Origin: a virus
DNA: 22,770 bases
Strand: one strand, 5' to 3'
IMG/VR virus record: IMGVR_UViG_3300020189_000073
Location: 1-22,770 of that record
The notes beneath the pieces are model-generated. The model saw only the letters and a list, made by a program, of their open reading frames with translations, made no database searches and had not been told where the DNA came from. The translations under genes and the position numbers were made by a program. This document shows, piece by piece, positions 1,731 through 19,813 of the stretch. Within the stretch, counting starts at the first letter, position 1. Every line of letters starts with the position of its first letter.

Positions 1731-3650
1731 CTACAGCCTTCCAACTGTTTGAGCCGTTGCCAGCTCGTCAAGGGAAACCACATAACGGGAGTCCACGTCA
1801 TTCCTCGACGCGAACTGGTTAGGCAAGAATTGAGAAACCCCACCCGCCTGAGTAAGTACTTCCCGCGCCACGATCTCGCAGAACCACAACGCCATGACGG
1901 CGTCCATCTTCAACTTGCTGCCCTTCACACCGGGCTGCCAAGTGATCAACTGCTCGATCAGTTTCTTAATGTTCTCAAAGTTGCTCGTGTCAGGTAACTC
2001 GATCAAGTTGTCATCAGCGTGCTTGAACGTCTCCTGACCTTCACGCTTCGTCTTCGACCCAAACAACGGCGCAAGAGAAGCAACACCAAAGTCCGGGTCC
2101 GACTTGTTCGTGGACGTGTGATGAGGTCGATACGCGATCCCCCGAGTCGCCAAGAATGACCTGATCTCCTCATCCTGCGTCAGGAACAACTGGAACGCGT
2201 TCGACTCCACAATCACCGTGTGCGGCTTAAACCTGTCCGCCCACGAGTAAATCAACTCGCGGATAGCAGCCGGGGTCGGCGAAGCCATCACGCTCACGTC
2301 AAGGACGTACCGTTTCTGCGTGCGCCGATCCACCGCGTAAGCGACAGCAGCAGTCTCACCCGCCATCGCCGGGTCAATCCCGATCACCCGGTAGAAGTTC
2401 GACGACTCCGACGGGTGACCAGCCGCACCGGATACCAATGGCCCCGGCTTCCTCATTCCATTAACCGCGCCTCTGACGCATACCGGGTCAAAAATGGCAT
2501 CCTCTGCGACATCGAGGTTCTGATACACCAGCGACCATTTGCCGGGACCAACCTCATTGCGGACCACGTTCAACCGTGGGCCGCTCCACCTCTCAAAGAA
2601 ACCATCCTCATCCGGTTGGTCACCCTCAGAAAGGGGAAGATCACACTTCGGCCACAACGTCTCCCAATCACTCGGGTCATCGCCGTAGCCAAGAACAGCA
2701 GGCATCGCGAGATACGTCCAAGGGATCTTCGCGTCCGTGTAATGCTCAGGGTTACGCAGCTCCCGATACAGATCAACCGGAGCAACCCGCGTACCCACAA
2801 CCAGCAACTGACCACCATTCGGAGGAAGGCGGGATGCCACTTCCTGCCGGATCCAGTCCTGATGCTTCTCCCACTCCCCCGCGTTCGACAGGGTCACGAC
2901 GTCGTCCAGCACAATCAGATTCGCACGCGAGCCGTATATGGCCCCGCCTGCTCCTAGTGCTTCGACGGTCGGGTCTTTCTCCCCGGAATCGCGTGCATCC
3001 CCGCCCAAGTAAATCTTGTTCGCCGCCCACTGGTCAGCGGTGGCCTTATAGCCATCCGCTGGCCCGAAAGCGAACTGCATGTCCGCGTAACGAGGATGCG
3101 TCAACCGCTGCTTAATCGCATACAGGAACTTCTTCGCCTGCTCCTGCGTCTTCGACACAATCAACACGTTGATGTTCGGATCCTTAGCGATCCGATACGT
3201 CACATAATTGATCGTGATCGTCATGCTCTTCGCATGATTCGGAGGGACATTAACCAGCAGGCGAGAAAGCCCAGCCGTGCCCTTCTCATAAACCATCGAG
3301 TCGTGAACCCAACCGGGTTCACGGCCCTCCAACAGGTCAGCCACATTCTGCATGTGCGGCCAAACCTTCGTGAACAAGTACTTCTCGCTGAACTCAGCGA
3401 AACCAATATCCGAGTCGCGAGCCTCCCGGCTCGCGTCCACCCGACCCAGCCGGACAGAATCCATCCGGTCAGCGAAATCCTTCGACTCCCGACGGCGAGT
3501 CTCGTACCACGAGCGAGACCGCCGGATCACCTTCAAACCCTGCTCAATCGTCCGGCCCTGCCGGACCAGATCCAACAGCTCCGCCTCCGCAACCGCAGGA
3601 GCCACCCGGCGACGAGGTTGCTCCTCCGCCTTCCTCGGTTTCCTATCCAC
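1731..3650 (-). CDS. terL: Terminase large subunit (DNA-packaging ATPase/nuclease)
   Basis: TerL pumps DNA into the prohead and cuts the concatemer. An N-terminal helical region (about residues 20-60) is followed by a packaging-type P-loop, VPPNHAKSM, near residue 135, which is a Lys-Ser variant of the usual PPRHGKS. A Walker B strand LIVLDDV lies near 245. The RNase H-like nuclease domain shows GIDPA with Asp about 426, VIVES with Glu about 482 and LKMDAVMAL with Asp about 583, the expected acidic triad. The open frame extends upstream to 3701. However, GTG at 3648-3650 is preceded four bases away by GGAGG, whereas the far upstream GTG has no ribosome-binding site. I therefore start here, giving 639 aa. 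The gene leads the leftward structural operon. No small terminase is visible in the window. Confidence 0.93.
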   Translation of the reverse strand: MDRKPRKAEEQPRRRVAPAVAEAELLDLVRQGRTIEQGLKVIRRSRSWYETRRRESKDFADRMDSVRLGRVDASREARDSDIGFAEFSEKYLFTKVWPHMQNVADLLEGREPGWVHDSMVYEKGTAGLSRLLVNVPPNHAKSMTITINYVTYRIAKDPNINVLIVSKTQEQAKKFLYAIKQRLTHPRYADMQFAFGPADGYKATADQWAANKIYLGGDARDSGEKDPTVEALGAGGAIYGSRANLIVLDDVVTLSNAGEWEKHQDWIRQEVASRLPPNGGQLLVVGTRVAPVDLYRELRNPEHYTDAKIPWTYLAMPAVLGYGDDPSDWETLWPKCDLPLSEGDQPDEDGFFERWSGPRLNVVRNEVGPGKWSLVYQNLDVAEDAIFDPVCVRGAVNGMRKPGPLVSGAAGHPSESSNFYRVIGIDPAMAGETAAVAYAVDRRTQKRYVLDVSVMASPTPAAIRELIYSWADRFKPHTVIVESNAFQLFLTQDEEIRSFLATRGIAYRPHHTSTNKSDPDFGVASLAPLFGSKTKREGQETFKHADDNLIELPDTSNFENIKKLIEQLITWQPGVKGSKLKMDAVMALWFCEIVAREVLTQAGGVSQFLPNQFASRNDVDSRYVVSLDELATAQTVGRL

Positions 3651-3727
3651 CCGGCCTCCAAAGGGGCAAAAAGGGGGGACCGACCGCCAAAGACACTCCA
3701 CCCGATTAAGAACTATTTGAGTGAGCA

Positions 3728-3756
3728 GCGCAGGCGGCCTTAAGGGCCGCCAGCGC
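3728..3756. other. Strong GC-rich hairpin upstream of terL
   Basis: GCGC, A, GGCGGCC, loop TTAAG, GGCCGCC, A, GCGC forms an 11-bp stem with one A-A mismatch. No T-run follows on either strand, so it is unlikely to be a simple intrinsic terminator. It lies about 80 bases before the terminase start, where a pac/cos recognition site, an operator or a structured 5' leader are all possible. Confidence 0.6.
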
Positions 3757-4045
3757 AGCGAACGAAAAACACTCTCTATATAAGAAGAGGGCTAGAGAAA
3801 GGGTGTTTATCAATACCCGCGACAAAAAAAGTATTTACGCGCCCCATAAAACCGCGAAATTAGTCCCGCCCCCCGACTTGGTCGAAATTTTTCTTGGGAC
3901 TACACACGCGCGGGGGGGCGGGGCGGTTAAGCATCCGGGGGTCAGGGCGGCGGGGGTACTTCCGTACAAGTCCGACGCGTGCGACAGAGGCAAAAAACGG
4001 TCCCGCGCGGGTCTCGCGGGGCACAGTGCGGTCGGGAAGGGGGGG

Positions 4046-4107
4046 AGTGCATGAGGGATGTTGCAGAATTGAAATAGGTCGGCGGATGGTCCGCCGGTCG
4101 GAAGGGA
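4046..4107 (+). promoter_or_regulatory. Structured leader A (one hairpin) before gene 4115
   Basis: The left part, AGTGCATGAGGGATGTTGCA at 4046-4065, matches the conserved leader of elements B, C and F. Then GGTCGGCGGA (4077-4086), loop TGG and TCCGCCGGTC (4090-4099) form a 10-bp stem with two wobbles. The ribosome-binding motif GGAAGGGA (4100-4107) follows at once and ATG is seven bases on. Only the second hairpin of the full element is present. Confidence 0.7.
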
Positions 4108-4114
4108 AGAAACG

Positions 4115-4348
4115 ATGAAGGTCACACCAGAAATGACGGTGGACGCGATTGCTCGCGTGCTTGCACAGACGGTGGCTCGCAATGAGGCGCTTGGGCAGGG
4201 GCGTCCGGCAGAGTACGCGCAGTTCGAAGACGGCTTCCGCTTCGCGGTGGAGGCGGTGGGGCGTGCGGTGTCGGTTCTGCTGCCTCCGGGTGAGACGACG
4301 CTGACGTGGACGCAGCGGATCGTGTCCACGCCATCGCAGGATGCATGA
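4115..4348 (+). CDS. Hypothetical protein, 77 aa
   Basis: I do not recognise this protein. It is a compact, probably mostly helical polypeptide (TVDAIARVLAQTVARNEALG, then FAVEAVGRAVSVLL) without cysteine motifs, signal peptide or membrane segment. The start is supported by GGAAGGGA seven bases upstream, the motif shared by other genes of this operon. It is the first gene of the rightward operon. Its last codons (TCG CAG GAT GCA TGA) are formed by the conserved leader of structured element B, so the element supplies both its C-terminus (QDA) and its stop. That suggests the native end may have been altered by insertion or spread of the element. Confidence 0.7.
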   Translation: MKVTPEMTVDAIARVLAQTVARNEALGQGRPAEYAQFEDGFRFAVEAVGRAVSVLLPPGETTLTWTQRIVSTPSQDA

Positions 4349-4426
4349 GGGTTGTCGCAGCATAGTGGTAGACCGGGGGCGTGCCCCGGTCTTCCGCTAT
4401 GTCGTGATGGTCACGACAGGAAGGGA
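4336..4426 (+). promoter_or_regulatory. Structured leader B (two hairpins) before gene 4432
   Basis: The conserved leader GCAGGATGCATGAGGG is at 4336-4351. Hairpin 1 pairs 4361-4378 with 4384-4401 (CATAGTGGTAGACCGGGG against CCCCGGTCTTCCGCTATG, one T-T mismatch and one wobble). Hairpin 2 is GTCGTGA, loop TGG, TCACGAC at 4401-4417. GGAAGGGA at 4419-4426 and ATG at 4432 follow. This is the best-formed copy of the family. Confidence 0.8.
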
Positions 4427-4431
4427 GCAAC

Positions 4432-5151
4432 ATGAGCAAGGCAACAGGCGCGGTCATCTGGCGCGGACCGTCGCGGTGGGACGGCGCACCACTGGTGGTG
4501 GTGGTGACGTGGCACAGCGGCAACCGTAAGACGGGTGACATGGCGCAGACGTGGATCCTGCGGGAGGATCTCGCGCCGCTCGACGCTATCGCGTCGGGCG
4601 ACGATGCATCCATCTGCGGGGATTGTCCGCATCGCCGTCGGCAGCACGCGGACGGCTCGATGCGGCGGACGTGTTACGTCAACGTGGGGCAGGCTCCGGC
4701 GGCTGTGTGGAAGACGCTGCGGCGTGGCGGCTACCCGGACATGACTCCGGCGGAGGCGTCGGAATTCCTCGACGGTCGAGGGGTGAGGCTCGGCGCTTAC
4801 GGCGATCCGGGGATGGTCCCGGTCGACGTGTGGGAGGCGCTCACGGCGAAGGCCGCGATGCACACGGGCTATACGCATCAGTGGCGGGATCTCGATGACG
4901 TGTGGGCGTCGTTCATCATGGCGAGCGCGGACACGGTCGAGGATCGTCGGGAGGCTCGGCAGCGGGGCTGGCGATCCTTCTACGTCGCCCCGGTGGGCGA
5001 GGCGGTGGCGGATGGTTCGGTGTTGTGCTTGAGCGAGGCTCGCGGGACGTCGTGCCTTGACTGCGGGGCGTGCGGCGGGACGAAGGGTCGCGACACGGTC
5101 GCGGTCGATATCTTCATCAACGCTCACGGCGGGGCCAAGGCTTACGTCTGA
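4432..5151 (+). CDS. Conserved phage protein, Cys-rich, 239 aa
   Basis: I cannot assign a function. The protein has two candidate metal-binding clusters: CGDCPHRRR near residue 62 followed by RTCYVN near residue 80, and CLDCGACGG near residues 212-220 close to the C-terminus. The middle (VWKTLRRGGYPDMTP, RLGAYGDPGMVP, HTGYTHQWR, GWRSFYVAPVGE) looks like a conserved globular family that I have an impression of seeing in unrelated phages and plasmids, but I cannot name it. It has no signal peptide or membrane segment. The start is fixed by GGAAGGGA five bases upstream. It is the largest of the first seven small genes and sits between structured leaders B and C. Confidence 0.8.
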   Translation: MSKATGAVIWRGPSRWDGAPLVVVVTWHSGNRKTGDMAQTWILREDLAPLDAIASGDDASICGDCPHRRRQHADGSMRRTCYVNVGQAPAAVWKTLRRGGYPDMTPAEASEFLDGRGVRLGAYGDPGMVPVDVWEALTAKAAMHTGYTHQWRDLDDVWASFIMASADTVEDRREARQRGWRSFYVAPVGEAVADGSVLCLSEARGTSCLDCGACGGTKGRDTVAVDIFINAHGGAKAYV

Positions 5152-5153
5152 AT

Positions 5154-5243
5154 GCAGGATGCTTGAGGGCCGTGGTTGCATGGTGGTAGATCGGCGCTGG
5201 TCGATCTACTGCCATGTCGTGGATGGCCCACGACAGGAAGGGA
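5154..5243 (+). promoter_or_regulatory. Structured leader C (two hairpins) before gene 5249
   Basis: The leader GCAGGATGCTTGAGGG is at 5154-5169, one base different from B. Hairpin 1 pairs 5179-5194 with 5201-5216 continuously, with three G-T wobbles. Hairpin 2 is GTCGTGG, loop ATGGC, CCACGAC at 5216-5234. GGAAGGGA is at 5236-5243. Several stem positions differ from B on both sides while pairing is kept, for example A-T to G-C near the base of hairpin 1. Confidence 0.8.
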
Positions 5244-5248
5244 GAGTG

Positions 5249-5383
5249 ATGGGTTACCTATCGCAGATTCGGGACGTGCTGTACCCCGGCGGTGACATGG
5301 ACCACGAGTGGTCGCCGTCGACGCTGGAGCAGATCGCTGCAGTGATCGCTGAGTGGGAGCAGGCGTGCTGCGGGGATGAGTGA
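5249..5383 (+). CDS. Small hypothetical protein, 44 aa
   Basis: This short ORF (MGYLSQIRDVLYPGGD to QACCGDE) has no recognisable family. It looks acidic and helical, with SPSTLEQIAAVIAEWEQA as a probable amphipathic helix and a vicinal Cys pair at the end. The start is set by GGAAGGGA five bases upstream after structured leader C. A longer in-frame extension upstream would run through the hairpins and is rejected. Having its own well-formed leader is the main reason to believe it is expressed. Confidence 0.65.
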   Translation: MGYLSQIRDVLYPGGDMDHEWSPSTLEQIAAVIAEWEQACCGDE

Positions 5384-5392
5384 CCGTGACCG

Positions 5393-5459
5393 CTTGGTGG
5401 TTGCCGAGCCTGCTGGCTCGGCGGCTGCCATGTCGTCGACGGTCGACGACAGGAAGGGA
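5393..5459 (+). promoter_or_regulatory. Structured leader D (two hairpins) before gene 5465
   Basis: The conserved GCAGGATGCATGAGGG box is absent. Hairpin 1 has the core GCCGAGCC (5403-5410), loop TGCT, GGCTCGGC (5415-5422), extended outward by wobble and Watson-Crick pairs to T5395-A5430. Hairpin 2 is GTCGTCGA, loop CGG, TCGACGAC at 5432-5450. GGAAGGGA is at 5452-5459, five bases before ATG. Confidence 0.75.
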
Positions 5460-5464
5460 TAAGC

Positions 5465-5740
5465 ATGAGCAGGGAAATTGAACACGAGATCCGTGACGCT
5501 GTGCTGCGCGGACTGAAGATGAACGACGCGGTGCGGGTCCACCCGAACTACGGCGTCGAGGATCAGGTCGTCCGAGGCAACATCGTGGGCTGGTCGACGG
5601 GCTGGGGGCCGGACATGGTCGAGGTGCGGATCAGCCACGACACGGTCTGGAGTGTGCCTCGCTTCGCCGTGATATCAGCCGAGATGTACGACGACTTCAA
5701 GCAGTGGGAGAAGCACTGCGAGGCCGAGGTGACGGCATGA
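5465..5740 (+). CDS. Hypothetical protein, 91 aa
   Basis: I do not recognise a named family. After a short N-terminal helix (REIEHEIRDAVLRGLKMNDA) comes a beta-rich segment, VRVHPNYGVEDQVVRGNIVG and MVEVRISHDTVWSVPRFAVI, that resembles a small SH3-like barrel. A C-terminal helix ends in FKQWEKHCEAEVTA. It has no membrane or secretion signal. GGAAGGGA five bases upstream, after leader D, fixes the start. Its stop overlaps the next ATG (ATGA), so the next gene is probably translationally coupled. Confidence 0.7.
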   Translation: MSREIEHEIRDAVLRGLKMNDAVRVHPNYGVEDQVVRGNIVGWSTGWGPDMVEVRISHDTVWSVPRFAVISAEMYDDFKQWEKHCEAEVTA

Positions 5741-5997
5741 GCGCGGCGACGGAGTACATCGACATCACATGGACGTGGGAGTCGGCAGTGAATCTGTATG
5801 TGGCGCTGCTGATGGATCCCGGATGCGAACACGAGGTGAAGATGCAGTGCAAGCAAGACCTGCTGCGCCTCGCTAAGGCAGTCGACGCTGAGCAGCAGCC
5901 GGAGCAAGTCTGCGATTGCGGTGCTGATCTCAGCGAGTACAGCGACACGGCCTACGACCACCTCTGTATCGACTGCGCCGAGGCGGTGACTTCCTGA
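5737..5997 (+). CDS. Small protein with a C-terminal Cys-pair (zinc-ribbon-like) motif, 86 aa
   Basis: The ATGA overlap with the preceding gene sets the start, and a longer upstream extension of this frame is rejected. Residues 1-60 look helical (SAVNLYVALLMDPGCEHEVK, then QDLLRLAKAVDAEQQ). The C-terminal 25 residues carry VCDCGADL and then LCIDC, a CxC ... CxxC pattern suggesting a zinc knuckle. No function can be assigned. It is one of several small Cys-pair proteins in this operon. Confidence 0.7.
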   Translation: MSAATEYIDITWTWESAVNLYVALLMDPGCEHEVKMQCKQDLLRLAKAVDAEQQPEQVCDCGADLSEYSDTAYDHLCIDCAEAVTS

Positions 5998-6003
5998 GTA
6001 GGT

Positions 6004-6066
6004 GCGAGTCGGGCAGGGACGTTGCGCCCTGCCCTTCTCGGGCAACTCAGCCCACGAATGAAGGGA
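6004..6066 (+). promoter_or_regulatory. Structured leader E (divergent two-hairpin type) before gene 6074
   Basis: CGAG, TC, GGGCAGGG (6011-6018) pairs with CCCTGCCC (6027-6034), TT, CTCG, giving an 8-bp plus 4-bp stem with a symmetric 2x2 internal loop. A small second stem, GGGC (6040-6043) with GCCC (6050-6053), follows. Then TGAAGGGA (6059-6066) and ATG at 6074. The architecture matches B-D but the sequence is largely unrelated. No T-run follows, so it is not a standard terminator. Confidence 0.55.
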
Positions 6067-6073
6067 GCAAGAC

Positions 6074-6424
6074 ATGACACCGGAACAAATCTGGGAAGAG
6101 GCCGAAGCGCACGCGCTGGCATCGGCGAGGGCGTGCGTGCCCGAGCCGATGGTCGTCACGTCACGCACGGCCACGGAGCAGAAGATCTACTACGTCCCGC
6201 AGGGCGTGTGTGGTTTCGCTTCGATCCGATTCGCAGGCAACACCGCCTTCGGGCGGTGGGCCAAGCGCGTCGGTCATGCCACGCCTGCGTATGGCGGTGG
6301 CTTGGCCGTGCATGTGCGTGAGGGCGGTCAGTCCTACGAGATCAAGGATGCGTATGCGCGGTCGTTCGCCGCAGTGTTGAAGATCCACGGCATCAAGGCT
6401 CGGGTCGAGAGTTATCTCGACTAA
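6074..6424 (+). CDS. Conserved hypothetical phage protein, 116 aa
   Basis: The sequence begins MTPEQIWEEAEAHAL, a probable helix, followed by a beta-rich middle (KIYYVPQGVCGFASIRFAG) and a C-terminal helix (YARSFAAVLKIHGIKARVES). The pattern of a tyrosine-rich beta sheet and the ending AFAxVLxxxGIKA seems familiar from small phage proteins, but I know no function for it. It has no Cys cluster, signal or membrane segment. TGAAGGGA with seven-base spacing supports the start. It lies between structured leaders E and F. Confidence 0.75.
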   Translation: MTPEQIWEEAEAHALASARACVPEPMVVTSRTATEQKIYYVPQGVCGFASIRFAGNTAFGRWAKRVGHATPAYGGGLAVHVREGGQSYEIKDAYARSFAAVLKIHGIKARVESYLD

Positions 6425-6425
6425 C

Positions 6426-6525
6426 GCAGGATGCATGAGGGCTGTGTCACTGTTGATGGTGAGAGCCGGGGTAACCCGGCTCGATCCATGAGCCGTGAAG
6501 TACACGACTCAACCAGATGAAGGGA
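6426..6525 (+). promoter_or_regulatory. Structured leader F (two hairpins) before gene 6532
   Basis: GCAGGATGCATGAGGG at 6426-6441 is identical to B. Hairpin 1 has ATGG (6456-6459), a 3x3 internal loop (TGA/GAT, allowing tandem G-A pairs), GAGCCGGG, loop GTAA (GNRA type), CCCGGCTC and CCAT (6486-6489). Hairpin 2 is GAG, C, CGTG, AAGTA, CACG, A, CTC at 6490-6510. TGAAGGGA at 6518-6525 precedes ATG 6532 by six bases. Confidence 0.75.
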
Positions 6526-7828: not shown

Positions 7829-8053
7829 ATGGTCAACATCGATACGGACACCGAGTACGACGGGTGGCAGCCGACGTGCAAGAACGGGCACGACAAGCGC
7901 ACCTCGGGCTGGACGCAACTGAATGGCTGCCGTGAGTGCAAGCGAGAGGCAGCACGTCGATACCGGGAGGCACGCAAGGCCGGTGTCGAGAAGCAAGCGA
8001 GCAAGCAGCAGCCGAGAAGGGATCTCGGCTTCGACAAAGTGAAGGGGCAGTGA
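7829..8053 (+). CDS. Small zinc-finger protein, 74 aa
   Basis: The N-terminal half contains PTCKNGHDKRTSGW and then NGCRECKREAARRYR, a C-x3-H ... C-x2-C pattern like the treble-clef zinc fingers seen in small phage HNH-related proteins, but no HNH catalytic histidines follow. The C-terminal half is strongly basic (REARKAGVEKQASKQQPRR), suggesting nucleic-acid binding. TGAAGGGA overlaps the methyltransferase stop and ends six bases before ATG 7829. An upstream in-frame ATG at 7814 lies within that motif and is not preferred. The stop overlaps the next start (TGATG). Confidence 0.7.
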   Translation: MVNIDTDTEYDGWQPTCKNGHDKRTSGWTQLNGCRECKREAARRYREARKAGVEKQASKQQPRRDLGFDKVKGQ

Positions 8054-8419: not shown

Positions 8420-8596
8420 ATGAGCGGCTACATCATTCTCCTGCTGCTCCTCATCGTGGGCACGGTCATCCTCGCCCACGAGATGGGACGGCAGGTCGGG
8501 TACGAACACGGTCTCAATGACGCTGAACGCAGGATGTCAGAGGGATATGAGAAGATAAGAATCAGTAACACCAACAAGGAAGGGGTTCAGGGATGA
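8420..8596 (+). CDS. Small single-pass membrane protein, 58 aa
   Basis: Residues 4-19 (YIILLLLLIVGTVILA) form an uninterrupted hydrophobic segment able to span the membrane. They are followed by a charged tail (HEMGRQVGYEHGLNDAERRM) that would lie on one side of the membrane. The start ATG is placed by GGAGGAAGC immediately after the previous TAA. The stop overlaps the next ATG (ATGA). Holin-like or superinfection-exclusion roles are conceivable, but nothing in the sequence distinguishes them and the gene is far from the lysis-related genes at the right edge. Confidence 0.7.
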   Translation: MSGYIILLLLLIVGTVILAHEMGRQVGYEHGLNDAERRMSEGYEKIRISNTNKEGVQG

Positions 8597-9549
8597 ACCG
8601 TTTGGAACTAGTACGACGCGAACAGAATGCACTGAGCAAGACCTTGCTCGACGTGCATGAAGAAACCAGTGTCGAGGGCGTCCTCGACCGAGCCAACCTC
8701 AACTTTGAGGTGGAATTGCAGGAGTTGAGTTCTCAGGTGGTAACACCAATGCCTAACTCCGATGCCGGGTTCAACGTAACTCGGGTCAACTACACACAGT
8801 CAGGGGTTGTCCGCATGGACAACCTGAAGCCCATCGGCGTGGTCGGTGAGCGGTACACACCGATCCAGAATCGGGATGCGTTCTCCACCCTGCAGTACCT
8901 GCAGGATGAGGGCTTCATCACCGGGTACGAGCAGGCCGGGATGCTCGGTGACGGGCAGCGGTGCTTCATCATCGCTCGGCTCAACGACAGCATGACGCTG
9001 ACCGACACGCACCACGGTCGGATCATGTTCGCCACCAGTCACGATGGCTCGGGCGCATTCCACGTCCGTGCCCTCGCCGAGCGGCTGTTCTGCAGCAACC
9101 AGATCCCCAACCTCGCTCGTCGAGGCAAGGGCGTGATCAGCATCCGGCACACGACCAGTGCGAACGCTCGCTTGCAGCAAGTCAAGCAAGCCGTGCTGTC
9201 GGAGATGCGCTGGTTCGATGAGTACCAGAACTGGTACGACAAGATGTGCAGCACCGATGTCGACTGGCGAGTCACCAGTGCGTACCTCAATCAGGTCGCA
9301 CCGAAGCGTGACCCGAAGATGTTGTCTGAGGTCGAGCGCCGGAACGATGAGCGCAGGCAAGCCAAGATCCTTGATCGGATCACCGGCCAGTTCAACGCCA
9401 ACATCAAGGACACCGTGGCTGCCCTGTTCCAAGGCGCAGTCGAGTACTCCGACTACGACAGTCGGGGTCGCAACGCCGACCGCATCCTGATGGGTCGGGA
9501 CATCGAGTTCAAGTCTCGTGCATGGGACGCCGCCAAGGCGCTCGTGTAG
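8593..9549 (+). CDS. DUF932-family phage/plasmid protein, 318 aa
   Basis: The sequence fits the DUF932 family (phage/plasmid-like protein, TIGR03299): GVVGERYTPIQNRDAFSTLQ near residues 82-101, a glycine-rich FITGYEQAGMLGDGQRCFII strand pair, then ATSHDGSGAFHVRALAERLFCSNQ with conserved R and C residues, and a helical C-terminal half. Members are common on phages and plasmids, often near replication or accessory genes. Their biochemical role is not established. The ATG overlaps the membrane-protein stop, and GGAAGGGG lies upstream. The length is normal for the family. A hairpin follows the gene. Confidence 0.85.
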   Translation: MNRLELVRREQNALSKTLLDVHEETSVEGVLDRANLNFEVELQELSSQVVTPMPNSDAGFNVTRVNYTQSGVVRMDNLKPIGVVGERYTPIQNRDAFSTLQYLQDEGFITGYEQAGMLGDGQRCFIIARLNDSMTLTDTHHGRIMFATSHDGSGAFHVRALAERLFCSNQIPNLARRGKGVISIRHTTSANARLQQVKQAVLSEMRWFDEYQNWYDKMCSTDVDWRVTSAYLNQVAPKRDPKMLSEVERRNDERRQAKILDRITGQFNANIKDTVAALFQGAVEYSDYDSRGRNADRILMGRDIEFKSRAWDAAKALV

Positions 9550-10156: not shown

Positions 10157-10792
10157 TCAGTACGGACTCTTCCCACCAAGAGCCTCGATCAGTTGCCTCA
10201 TCCCACGGCGAGAGATCTGCTCAACTCGCTGCGGGGAGATCCCCCACTGGTGACCGATGTCAACCAGCGTTAACCCATCACCCCACCGGCTCACGACGAT
10301 GCCGTAGGTGCGGGTGTCCAGTTCTTTCAAAGCCATCTCAACGTCATAGACGAGGGCGAGGATGTCTCCGCCCTCGCTCGCTGGCTTCCGCTTCCGCTTC
10401 TGCCCCATGTCTGCCGGGTCGAGGATCTGACCAGCCGAGTCAGGGCCACCGTTGTGGATCACCTCGATGATCTTCTCGATGGTGGCTGGCCGGTAGAAGT
10501 ACTCATCCTCCGGGCGGTAGCCGGACCGCTCGGCCTTCTCACGTCGAGCGAACTTCTCACACTCCCGACGCATCGACAGGATCAGTGCAGCCTCGCCCTG
10601 CTTACGCTCGCTCGGCTCATCTCGCACCAGATACTCCTCGACCTTCCGCTTACGACGTGACGCGTACTCACACGCCACCTGTCGTAGGTCATCAGCGTCG
10701 ACGTAGCCCTTGTAGCGGTCGGCTATGGGCCGAGCCGCTATGGCTGCCAGTTCAATCACCTCGATCCAGATCGGATCATCTGCCGCAATCAT
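10157..10792 (-). CDS. Sigma-factor-like protein with region-4 helix-turn-helix, 211 aa
   Basis: The C-terminal 40 residues contain LTLVDIGHQWGISPQRVEQI and RRGMRQLIEAL, an excellent match to the sigma-70 region 4 helix-turn-helix that reads the -35 element. The first 60 residues (YKGYVDADDLRQVACEYASR) resemble the start of sigma region 2 but are degenerate. The centre is rich in charged residues (KRKRKPASEGG). It could be a phage sigma factor or a sigma-like DNA-binding regulator that redirects host RNA polymerase (inference). It is the last gene of the long leftward operon. The ATG follows the exonuclease stop by seven bases. Confidence 0.75.
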   Translation of the reverse strand: MIAADDPIWIEVIELAAIAARPIADRYKGYVDADDLRQVACEYASRRKRKVEEYLVRDEPSERKQGEAALILSMRRECEKFARREKAERSGYRPEDEYFYRPATIEKIIEVIHNGGPDSAGQILDPADMGQKRKRKPASEGGDILALVYDVEMALKELDTRTYGIVVSRWGDGLTLVDIGHQWGISPQRVEQISRRGMRQLIEALGGKSPY

Positions 10793-18741: not shown

Positions 18742-18807
18742 GTCACTGCATTCATGCTCCCTGTGGACACACCCTGCATTCGTGGTTGACAGTTTGGTTC
18801 CTGCATT
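18742..18807 (+). repeat. Three CTGCATT repeats around the integrase promoter
   Basis: CTGCATT occurs at 18746-18752, 18774-18780 and 18801-18807, with starts 28 and 27 bases apart. The first two extend to CTGCATTC(A/G)TG. The third lies between the -35 and -10 of the integrase promoter. A fourth copy is at 17837-17843. They could be operators or integrase arm sites. Confidence 0.6.
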
Positions 18808-18814
18808 GGAGAAT
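18786..18814 (+). promoter_or_regulatory. Integrase promoter
   Basis: TTGACA (18786-18791), a 17-base spacer and GAGAAT (18809-18814) precede ATG 18821 by six bases. The -35 is a perfect consensus and the -10 matches TATAAT at four positions. The predicted +1 would fall at or next to the start codon, so the message may be leaderless. Confidence 0.65.
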
Positions 18815-18820
18815 CCTCCT

Positions 18821-19813
18821 ATGAGAGAACTACCTGAAGGATCGATCTCCTTCGCCGAAGCCGCCAAGCGATACCTCGCTTGGCGTGAACAACTGTTCAG
18901 CGCCAACACCGTGAAGAACGACCGGGTTGCGATTCGCCGCTTTGAGAAGGCCGTCGGCGAGGGCTGGTATCTGGACGAGATCACGCCAGACATCGGGTCA
19001 GCGTCCCTCCAATACGTTAGAGGGACGGTGGCTCCGACGACGGCGAACCAGTACTACTCACAGATGCAGGGATTCTGGAAGTGGTGCATCGACGAGGAAC
19101 TCGTCCCGCTCAACTTCAACCCGTTCCGCAACCAGCGGTGTCTCAAGGTTCAGAAGAAGGAGTACGAGCGCCTCCACCGGCACGAGTTCAGGCCCTTCAT
19201 AGAAGCCATCAGGAGGCCCGAGGACAGGATTTTGTGCAGCGTAGGTCTCTACCTATGCGTCCGGGCCAATGAGGTCTGCAGGATGCGTTTGAAGGACGTT
19301 AAACTAGAGGCTGGCTGGGCCGACGTGATCATCTCCAAGTCCTACGACGCGGACACCATGCCCATCCCCAACGAGCTGGACTCCGACCTCCGTCAGTGGC
19401 TCACCCACTACACCTCGATGGTCGGGCCACTCGACCCCGAAATGAAGTTGATCCCCTCGCCCGAGAGCAACGGCCACTACATGAAGTACCACCCGTACCG
19501 CTCACCAGCGAAGCCCGAACGCACGGTTCACCGTGCCGCCGAGGACTACGGCATCGAACTACCCAAGGGTCAAGGCGCACACTTCCTCCGCCGATCCGGC
19601 GCACGAGCATGGTTCGACGACCTCTGCGAGCAGGGCGTCGACAGTGCGCTCCGCACCGTCTCAGCCCACCTTCACCACGCCGACACCACCACGACGGAGG
19701 GCTACCTCGGCGTGTCCGGTGACCGGGCGAAGCGCAATCAACTCCTGCACCGTCGTACCATGTTCCCGTCAACAGAGACGGGCAACGTCGTGTACCTGCA
19801 GGAGGCAAAGTGA
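18821..19813 (+). CDS. int: Tyrosine-recombinase integrase, 330 aa
   Basis: This enzyme joins attP to a host attB site through a covalent 3'-phosphotyrosine. Residues 8-95 form the core-binding (SAM-like) domain (FAEAAKRYLAWREQ, ANQYYSQMQGFWKWC). The catalytic domain shows Arg148 in CVRANEVCRMRLKDV, Lys173 in IISKSYDADT, His254 and Arg257 in GAHFLRRSGARAWF, His285/286 in SAHLHHADTT, and the nucleophile Tyr295 in TEGYLG. All catalytic positions are present, so it looks active. The N-terminal arm-binding domain seems short or absent. The frame is open back to 18782, but that would place the start within the promoter, so ATG 18821 is used. It makes the phage temperate. Confidence 0.94.
   Translation: MRELPEGSISFAEAAKRYLAWREQLFSANTVKNDRVAIRRFEKAVGEGWYLDEITPDIGSASLQYVRGTVAPTTANQYYSQMQGFWKWCIDEELVPLNFNPFRNQRCLKVQKKEYERLHRHEFRPFIEAIRRPEDRILCSVGLYLCVRANEVCRMRLKDVKLEAGWADVIISKSYDADTMPIPNELDSDLRQWLTHYTSMVGPLDPEMKLIPSPESNGHYMKYHPYRSPAKPERTVHRAAEDYGIELPKGQGAHFLRRSGARAWFDDLCEQGVDSALRTVSAHLHHADTTTTEGYLGVSGDRAKRNQLLHRRTMFPSTETGNVVYLQEAK

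What the first reader, a model, noticed from the sequence alone, without database searches (positions are those of the whole stretch)
4046..6525. A family of structured leaders with two covarying hairpins placed before the plus-strand small genes
Six gene starts (4115, 4432, 5249, 5465, 6074, 6532) are preceded by the same architecture: an optional conserved box GCAGGATGCATGAGGG, a long variable hairpin, a short hairpin ending one or a few bases before the ribosome-binding site, then (GG/TG)AAGGGA and the start codon. In B, C and D the short hairpin is GTCGTGA/TCACGAC, GTCGTGG/CCACGAC and GTCGTCGA/TCGACGAC, with paired substitutions at two positions. The long hairpins also change on both sides while keeping pairing. 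A has only one hairpin and E is divergent. Cluster K mycobacteriophages have start-associated and extended start-associated sequences (SAS/ESAS) with inverted repeats. This set is analogous in position but different in sequence and has two stems. It could control translation or RNA processing, or mark exchangeable gene cassettes.
Basis: partly seen in the sequence, partly recalled or inferred. Interest (0 to 1): 0.82.

Follow-up and report, generated by a model that had tools for sequence, protein, structure and literature searches.

The report
Phage promoters with built-in RNA hairpins
A group of uncultivated phages puts in front of many of its small genes a ready-made unit, usually a gene-specific promoter followed at once by an RNA hairpin whose letters change freely while the pairing is kept, so each gene appears to carry its own switch and message cap and can be swapped as a cassette.

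Summary
The "optional box" is best read as a promoter. A position model built only from related phages finds exactly five sites in the window: leaders A, B, C and F, plus a fifth site before the DUF932 gene at 8593. In 39 copies the layout is fixed: (t)tGCAGGa (-35 region), TGnnTGAGGG (-28 to -19), extended -10 (TGn + yAnnnT), then a preferred A at the predicted +1. In most non-DUF932 leaders the first hairpin begins at +1 to +4. Five DUF932 copies have the promoter without a hairpin, so the two parts separate. Stems differ between copies yet pair almost perfectly (6.93 of 7, against 3.65 for swapped arms; 0 of 20,000 permutations). D and E lack the box and would be made by read-through. The hairpin nearest the ribosome site usually keeps an RYGG loop. 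Leaders E and F are conserved between phages whose neighbouring genes differ. Closest known: Cluster K ESAS, also promoters with inverted repeats, but there the repeat contains the -35 and -10; here the hairpin lies downstream and would be transcribed. Hairpin function (5'-end protection, keeping the ribosome site open) is inferred. New variant of a known kind.

The parts
4048..4057 (+). Leader A box TGCATGAGGG (spacer of predicted promoter; the GCAGG part is replaced by G-rich sequence)
   Evidence: position model from other phages, score 30.6
4064..4069 (+). Leader A predicted -10 CAGAAT; predicted +1 A at 4076
   Evidence: 39-element alignment; inferred
4077..4099 (+). Leader A hairpin ggtcggcggaTGGtccgccggtc, starts at predicted +2; loop of RYGG type
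4336..4351 (+). Leader B box GCAGGATGCATGAGGG (-34 to -19 of predicted promoter)
   Evidence: score 38.3
4358..4363 (+). Leader B predicted -10 CAGCAT; predicted +1 A at 4370
   Evidence: inferred
4361..4401 (+). Leader B long hairpin (inner stem 4370-4392 at predicted +1; outer arm overlaps the -10)
   Evidence: the repeat finder I2, covariation, fold
4400..4418 (+). Leader B short hairpin tgtcgtgATGGTcacgaca directly before GGAAGGGA
5154..5169 (+). Leader C box GCAGGATGCTTGAGGG
   Evidence: score 37.1
5176..5181 (+). Leader C predicted -10 TTGCAT (weak) with extended TGG; predicted +1 A at 5188
   Evidence: inferred
5179..5216 (+). Leader C long hairpin
5215..5235 (+). Leader C short hairpin before GGAAGGGA
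5395..5430 (+). Leader D long hairpin; no box, so probably present only in read-through RNA
   Evidence: no promoter score
5431..5451 (+). Leader D short hairpin tgtcgtcgACGGTcgacgaca before GGAAGGGA
5996..6073 (+). Leader E: boxless; inner stem 6011-6034, stem replaced on both arms relative to L082 inside otherwise near-identical flanks
6426..6441 (+). Leader F box GCAGGATGCATGAGGG
   Evidence: score 36.4
6448..6453 (+). Leader F predicted -10 CACTGT; predicted +1 near 6460
   Evidence: inferred
6463..6482 (+). Leader F first hairpin GAGCCGGGgtaaCCCGGCTC
6490..6510 (+). Leader F second hairpin GAGCCGTGaagtaCACGACTC (one mismatch); a re-lettered version stands in L200 (leader with box at 4028)
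   Evidence: sequence
8535..8563 (+). Fifth promoter copy (TGTCAGAGGG, -10 GAAGAT) before the DUF932 gene, without hairpin: natural control
   Evidence: score 21.4, fold -1.1 kcal/mol
10157..10792 (-). Phage sigma-70 region 4 protein, possible reader of these promoters (speculative)
   Evidence: PF04545 E=1.2e-9, phrog_354 sigma-K, homologues in relatives

Best explanation
Each unit is an expression cassette head for one phage gene. Steps supported by sequence: (1) usually a sigma-A/sigma-70-like promoter of the extended -10 type, with a conserved TGnnTGAGGG site inside its spacer; (2) a hairpin whose pairing, not sequence, is kept by selection and which in most copies begins within four bases of the predicted start; (3) in some leaders a second hairpin abutting or near the ribosome-binding site, usually with an RYGG loop; (4) then a GAAGGGA-like ribosome site and the start codon, outside the stems. 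Inferred: transcripts start at the conserved A 7 bases after the -10, so the messenger begins with a hairpin that denies decay enzymes a single-stranded 5' end, and the hairpins keep upstream RNA from pairing with the ribosome site, making expression independent of context. That would let cassettes be exchanged between phages with the leader as the region of homology. The spacer site is probably contacted by a phage or host regulator that switches the promoters together. Boxless D and E would be served by read-through from upstream promoters.
For: Position model from other phages: window scores 38.3, 37.1, 36.4, 30.6, 21.4, next best 4.6, shuffled maxima 3.6 or less; in the G001 genome its five sites score 25 or more, next 12.4. 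Extended -10 T-15 38/39, G-14 32/39; T-7 39/39, A-11 30/39; A at +1 30/39; the -10 score peaks only at the predicted offset, 2.38 of 3 against 1.49 or less. M. smegmatis sigma-A promoters show the same ANNNT between -13 and -6 and purine +1 (PMC6448022). Hairpin in all 34 non-DUF932 leaders, mean -17.9 kcal/mol, mean z -2.25, first paired base at +4 or earlier in 88%; five DUF932 copies mean -2.2 kcal/mol, z about 0. Covariation. Ribosome site mostly unpaired, 0.56-0.97 in native leaders. E and F leaders are shared with L082 while the small genes around them give no match.
Against: No transcript data. In the window copies the -10 hexamers are weak (CAGAAT, CAGCAT, TTGCAT, CACTGT). The outer arm of the long hairpin in B and C overlaps the -10, so it could be transcribed only from further upstream, yet it is kept paired. 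Shuffled leaders often also fold at the 5' end (51% against 88%), and single leaders rarely beat shuffles for ribosome-site access. The conserved RYGG loop is not explained by stability alone. The 39 copies are related, so permutation figures overstate independence; the set was collected by searching for the box, so conservation of the box columns is partly by construction (the -10, the +1 and the hairpin were not used in most of the search).
Confidence: 0.66

Rival explanations
1. The hairpin, above all its RYGG loop, is an RNA operator: a phage or host protein binds it and controls translation or decay of all these genes together.
For: 24 of 35 ribosome-proximal hairpins keep an RYGG loop on 21 different outer stem sequences, while upstream hairpins have it in 5 of 19.
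Against: No binding protein identified; several members have other loops (ATCGT, AAATG, ACCGT) in the same place; loops may be partly inherited.
Confidence: 0.2
2. The palindromes act as DNA: operators for a dimeric repressor or activator overlapping the promoter, as proposed for Cluster K ESAS.
For: In B and C the outer arms overlap the -10; ESAS repeats are thought to be protein sites (PMC3203893); the phage has a recombinase-like gene and may be temperate.
Against: Stem sequences within one genome share no common half-site, only pairing (swapped arms 3.65 of 7). A sequence-specific dimer would not bind them all. The spacer site TGnnTGAGGG is the better operator candidate.
Confidence: 0.08
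3. The hairpins are intrinsic terminators or attenuators that separate neighbouring genes.
For: Very GC-rich stems; one relative (76B) has TTTTAGTTT after the stem.
Against: Window leaders and most others have no T run after the stem; the next bases are or lead to the ribosome site.
Confidence: 0.05
4. The long stems are RNase III processing sites in polycistronic RNA, as between T7 early genes.
For: Long stems of 15-18 bp in B, C and D including arms upstream of the predicted start; D and E are boxless and so only in read-through RNA.
Against: A and most relatives have only 7-11 bp stems starting near the predicted +1, short for RNase III by general knowledge.
Confidence: 0.12

Closest known systems
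Cluster K mycobacteriophage SAS/ESAS (PMC3203893; promoter reading in PMC11373665)
   Same: Repeated units before a subset of non-structural genes; sigma-A-like promoter; inverted repeat; conserved ribosome-site region; spread over many small genes.
   Different: ESAS repeats have a fixed 17-bp sequence and contain the -35 and -10; pairing in RNA is reported as unsupported. Here stems have no fixed sequence, covary, and lie mostly downstream of the -10. SAS is a near-exact 13-mer; here only GAAGGGA-like.
Microbacterium phage Cluster EF/EC/EG/EI start-associated motifs (PMC7302621)
   Same: Short repeated motifs just upstream of start codons in small intergenic gaps.
   Different: Fixed sequences (for EG one 18-bp palindrome GATCAACCNNGGTTGATC); no re-lettered stems described in the passages read.
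5'-terminal stem-loops that stabilise mRNA (ompA type; Emory et al. 1992, cited in PMC7509114)
   Same: Hairpin at or near the 5' end of the transcript, ribosome site left free.
   Different: A host single-gene feature; here repeated before many genes of a phage with varied stems and joined to a common promoter.
Early promoters of the related phage G006 (L204)
   Same: Per-gene extended -10 promoters in the same genome region; core CCCTC(A/G)T at -25 to -19, the reverse complement of the box core at the same place.
   Different: Box in opposite orientation; at least two of four leaders lack an obvious hairpin.

Membership tests
Sigma-A/sigma-70 extended -10 promoter | TGn + TAnnnT (or ANNNT) 6-8 bases before a purine start | tested here: met
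   T-15 38/39, G-14 32/39, A-11 30/39, T-7 39/39, A at +1 30/39; offset peak. Weak first base in window copies.
Sigma-A/sigma-70 extended -10 promoter | Transcription actually starts there | not testable with these tools
   no RNA data for these uncultivated phages
Cluster K ESAS | Conserved 17-bp inverted repeat sequence shared by all copies of a genome | tested here: not met
   29 distinct arm pairs; swapped arms pair 3.65 of 7
Cluster K ESAS | Repeat arms contain -35 and -10 | tested here: not met
   In Anaya and Pixie TGTTGACA...TAnnnT lies within the repeats; here stems mostly begin after the -10; only the outer arm in B and C reaches it
Cluster K SAS | 13-mer GGGATAGGAGCCC near the start codon | tested here: not met
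   leaders carry GAAGGGA variants instead
Structured RNA family with covariation | Compensatory changes beyond chance across homologues | tested here: met
   orthologous stem replacement in E and CCCCACGAG/CTCGTGGGG to CCCCCCGAG/CTCGGGGGG between L064 and L076
Known Rfam families | Match at gathering threshold | tested here: not met
   no match in the window
Intrinsic terminator | GC stem followed by T run | tested here: not met
   no T run after the stems of window leaders
N4-type virion RNA polymerase hairpin promoters | DNA hairpin upstream of the start, with virion RNA polymerase gene | not tested
   hairpins lie downstream of a sigma-like -10; no search for such a polymerase was made; considered from general knowledge only

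The most novel reading that the evidence does not exclude
The re-lettered hairpins with a constant RYGG loop form an RNA regulon: one trans-acting factor reads the loop at the 5' end of many phage messengers, while stems diverge freely, perhaps to limit recombination or antisense between copies.
Probability: 0.2. Interest if true: 0.75.

Novelty: new variant of a known kind. Interest (0 to 1): 0.56.

Why it matters
Start-associated repeats in actinophages have been noted since 2011 without a settled function. This set separates the promoter part from the RNA part in a natural series (promoter alone, promoter plus one hairpin, promoter plus two, hairpins alone), with base pairing supported by covariation. 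That makes the question of what such leaders do directly testable with reporter fusions. It also offers a concrete mechanism for mosaic exchange of small phage genes: a portable leader that brings promoter, insulation and homology.

Tried and rejected
Megablast of the window against cultured phages: no match. Rfam: nothing. tRNA: none. Terminase relatives in 84,980 bacterial and archaeal genomes: none, so no host by prophage; nearest cultured terminases are an unnamed Caudovirales record (47%) and Streptomyces phages (about 45-47%). Box scan of viral contigs: most hits outside the terminase-linked group look like chance. TGAGGG-17-TAGAYC as an alternative promoter register fits only the window-type copies and was dropped for the register that also fits L064, L076, L083, L179, L198. 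Leader peptide starting in the box: no start codon common to the copies (sequence). Extended pairing of the loop with 16S rRNA: considered by eye, fits only a subset, dropped. First regex for genome-wide box distribution had a wrong spacing and found nothing; replaced by the position model. Paper searches for hairpin leaders or boundary sequences in phages gave nothing closer than ESAS.
Full report
WHAT WAS CHECKED. The window is a 22,770-base IMG/VR virus record. Its + strand small genes lie between the terminase gene (1731-3701, minus strand) and a DUF932 gene (8593-9549). Their stems are better than chance: all six score 8 or more, against 12% of random window stretches.

RELATIVES. Pattern and protein scans of viral contigs brought in close and distant relatives: L074 (99.4% DNA identity), L080 (99.98% over 7.9 kb), L068 (89%), L082 and L088 (84%), L064 and L076 (70%), and further ones found through the box, the terminase, or both (L083/L203, L125, L179, L093, L198, and the 40.9-kb record G001 = L200-L202). 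All carry the same kind of leader before small genes; where a terminase gene is on the same contig, they lie beside it and run the other way.

THE BOX IS BEST READ AS A PROMOTER. Thirty-nine boxed leaders align without gaps from the box to the predicted start (they were anchored on the box, and most were found by searching for it, so the box columns are conserved partly by construction). Column counts give G-34 38/39, G-31 38/39, TG at -28/-27 39/39, G-23 39/39, GG at -21/-20 39/39, then an extended -10 (T-15 38/39, G-14 32/39), A-11 30/39, T-7 39/39, and an A in 30/39 seven bases after the -10. The -10 match score peaks at that register only (2.38 of 3; other offsets 1.49 or less). This is the form described for M. 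smegmatis sigma-A promoters: ANNNT between -13 and -6, purine at +1 (PMC6448022). A position model built without the window's own copies finds five window sites (scores 38.3 to 21.4), the next best scoring 4.6; in G001 it finds that genome's five sites at 25 or more, the next 12.4. In five phages one of these sites stands before the DUF932 gene, where no comparable hairpin follows.

THE HAIRPIN. In all 34 other boxed leaders the RNA from the predicted +1 folds into a hairpin (mean -17.9 kcal/mol, mean z -2.25); in 88% the first paired base is at +4 or earlier, against 51% of shuffles that fold that early with -8 kcal/mol or better. Among 29 distinct arm pairs, own arms pair in 6.93 of 7 positions and swapped arms in 3.65; none of 20,000 reassignments reaches the observed sum. 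In the eight two-hairpin leaders of B type, both hairpins covary. In leader E the stem is replaced on both arms between the window and L082 while the flanks are unchanged. L064 and L076 differ by a paired A-T to C-G change. The ribosome-proximal hairpin keeps an RYGG loop in 24 of 35 leaders on 21 different outer stems.

LEADER TYPES. A: promoter, one hairpin. B, C, F: promoter, hairpin at or near the start, second hairpin near the ribosome site. D, E: no box. DUF932: promoter only. That the first hairpin follows the predicted start, and the second the ribosome site, suggests two jobs: protection or insulation of the 5' end, and an open ribosome site. Calculated ribosome-site openness is 0.56 to 0.97 in native leaders and lower on average in shuffled ones in five of six, but seldom significant one by one.

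CASSETTES. Window and L082 share leader E (84%) and leader F (96%), and the methylase region beyond, while BLASTN gives no match for the small genes between them. This fits exchange of genes at leaders; it was not tested on a larger scale.

AGAINST KNOWN SYSTEMS. Cluster K ESAS were said not to support RNA pairing (PMC3203893) and were later read as sigma-A-like promoters with an inverted repeat (PMC11373665). In Anaya and Pixie sequence the -35 and -10 lie in the repeat arms. In the present leaders the stems mostly begin downstream of the -10, have no common sequence, and covary. They therefore stand in a similar place but are not ESAS.

OPEN POINTS. The outer arm of the long hairpins in B and C overlaps the -10. 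The spacer site is conserved better than the -10; in phage G006 early promoters carry its reverse complement core at the same position, which suggests a DNA-binding regulator, unidentified. A sigma region 4 protein is encoded at 10157-10792 and its homologues occur in relatives with and without this box, so it is only a candidate. The host is unknown; an actinobacterium is inferred from the nearest terminases.

Noticed in passing
L204 (G006) minus strand, 14270, 13900, 12982, 12119: Four early promoters with GTTTCCCTC(A/G)TnnATGn + -10, the reverse complement of the box core at the same -25 to -19 position; only these four in 40 kb.
   Followed up: partly
L099 reverse complement, 7151 and 7769: Diverged version TTGCAACA..TTGACAC...CATAAT/GATAGT, again with a hairpin exactly 7 bases after the -10.
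   Followed up: partly
L135 + 5681, L140 + 3626: TTGACA-18-GATAAT, 7 bases, then the same 25-base hairpin, in two more distant relatives.
   Followed up: no
window 10157-10792 minus: Sigma-70 region 4 protein with homologues in related phages; only two weak matches (about 21%) among cultured phages.
   Followed up: partly
window 8010-8030: Stem AGCCGAGAAGGGATCTCGGCT inside a coding sequence is kept in L082 and, with changes, in G001.
   Followed up: no
window 18782-19813: Protein that looks like a tyrosine recombinase (by eye), 43% identical to one in G001; the phage may be temperate.
   Followed up: no
window 3700-4040: GC-rich non-coding stretch between terminase and leader A, partly conserved in relatives (GGGGCGGGGC...TTAAGCATCCGGGGGTC); perhaps a packaging or end site.
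   Followed up: no
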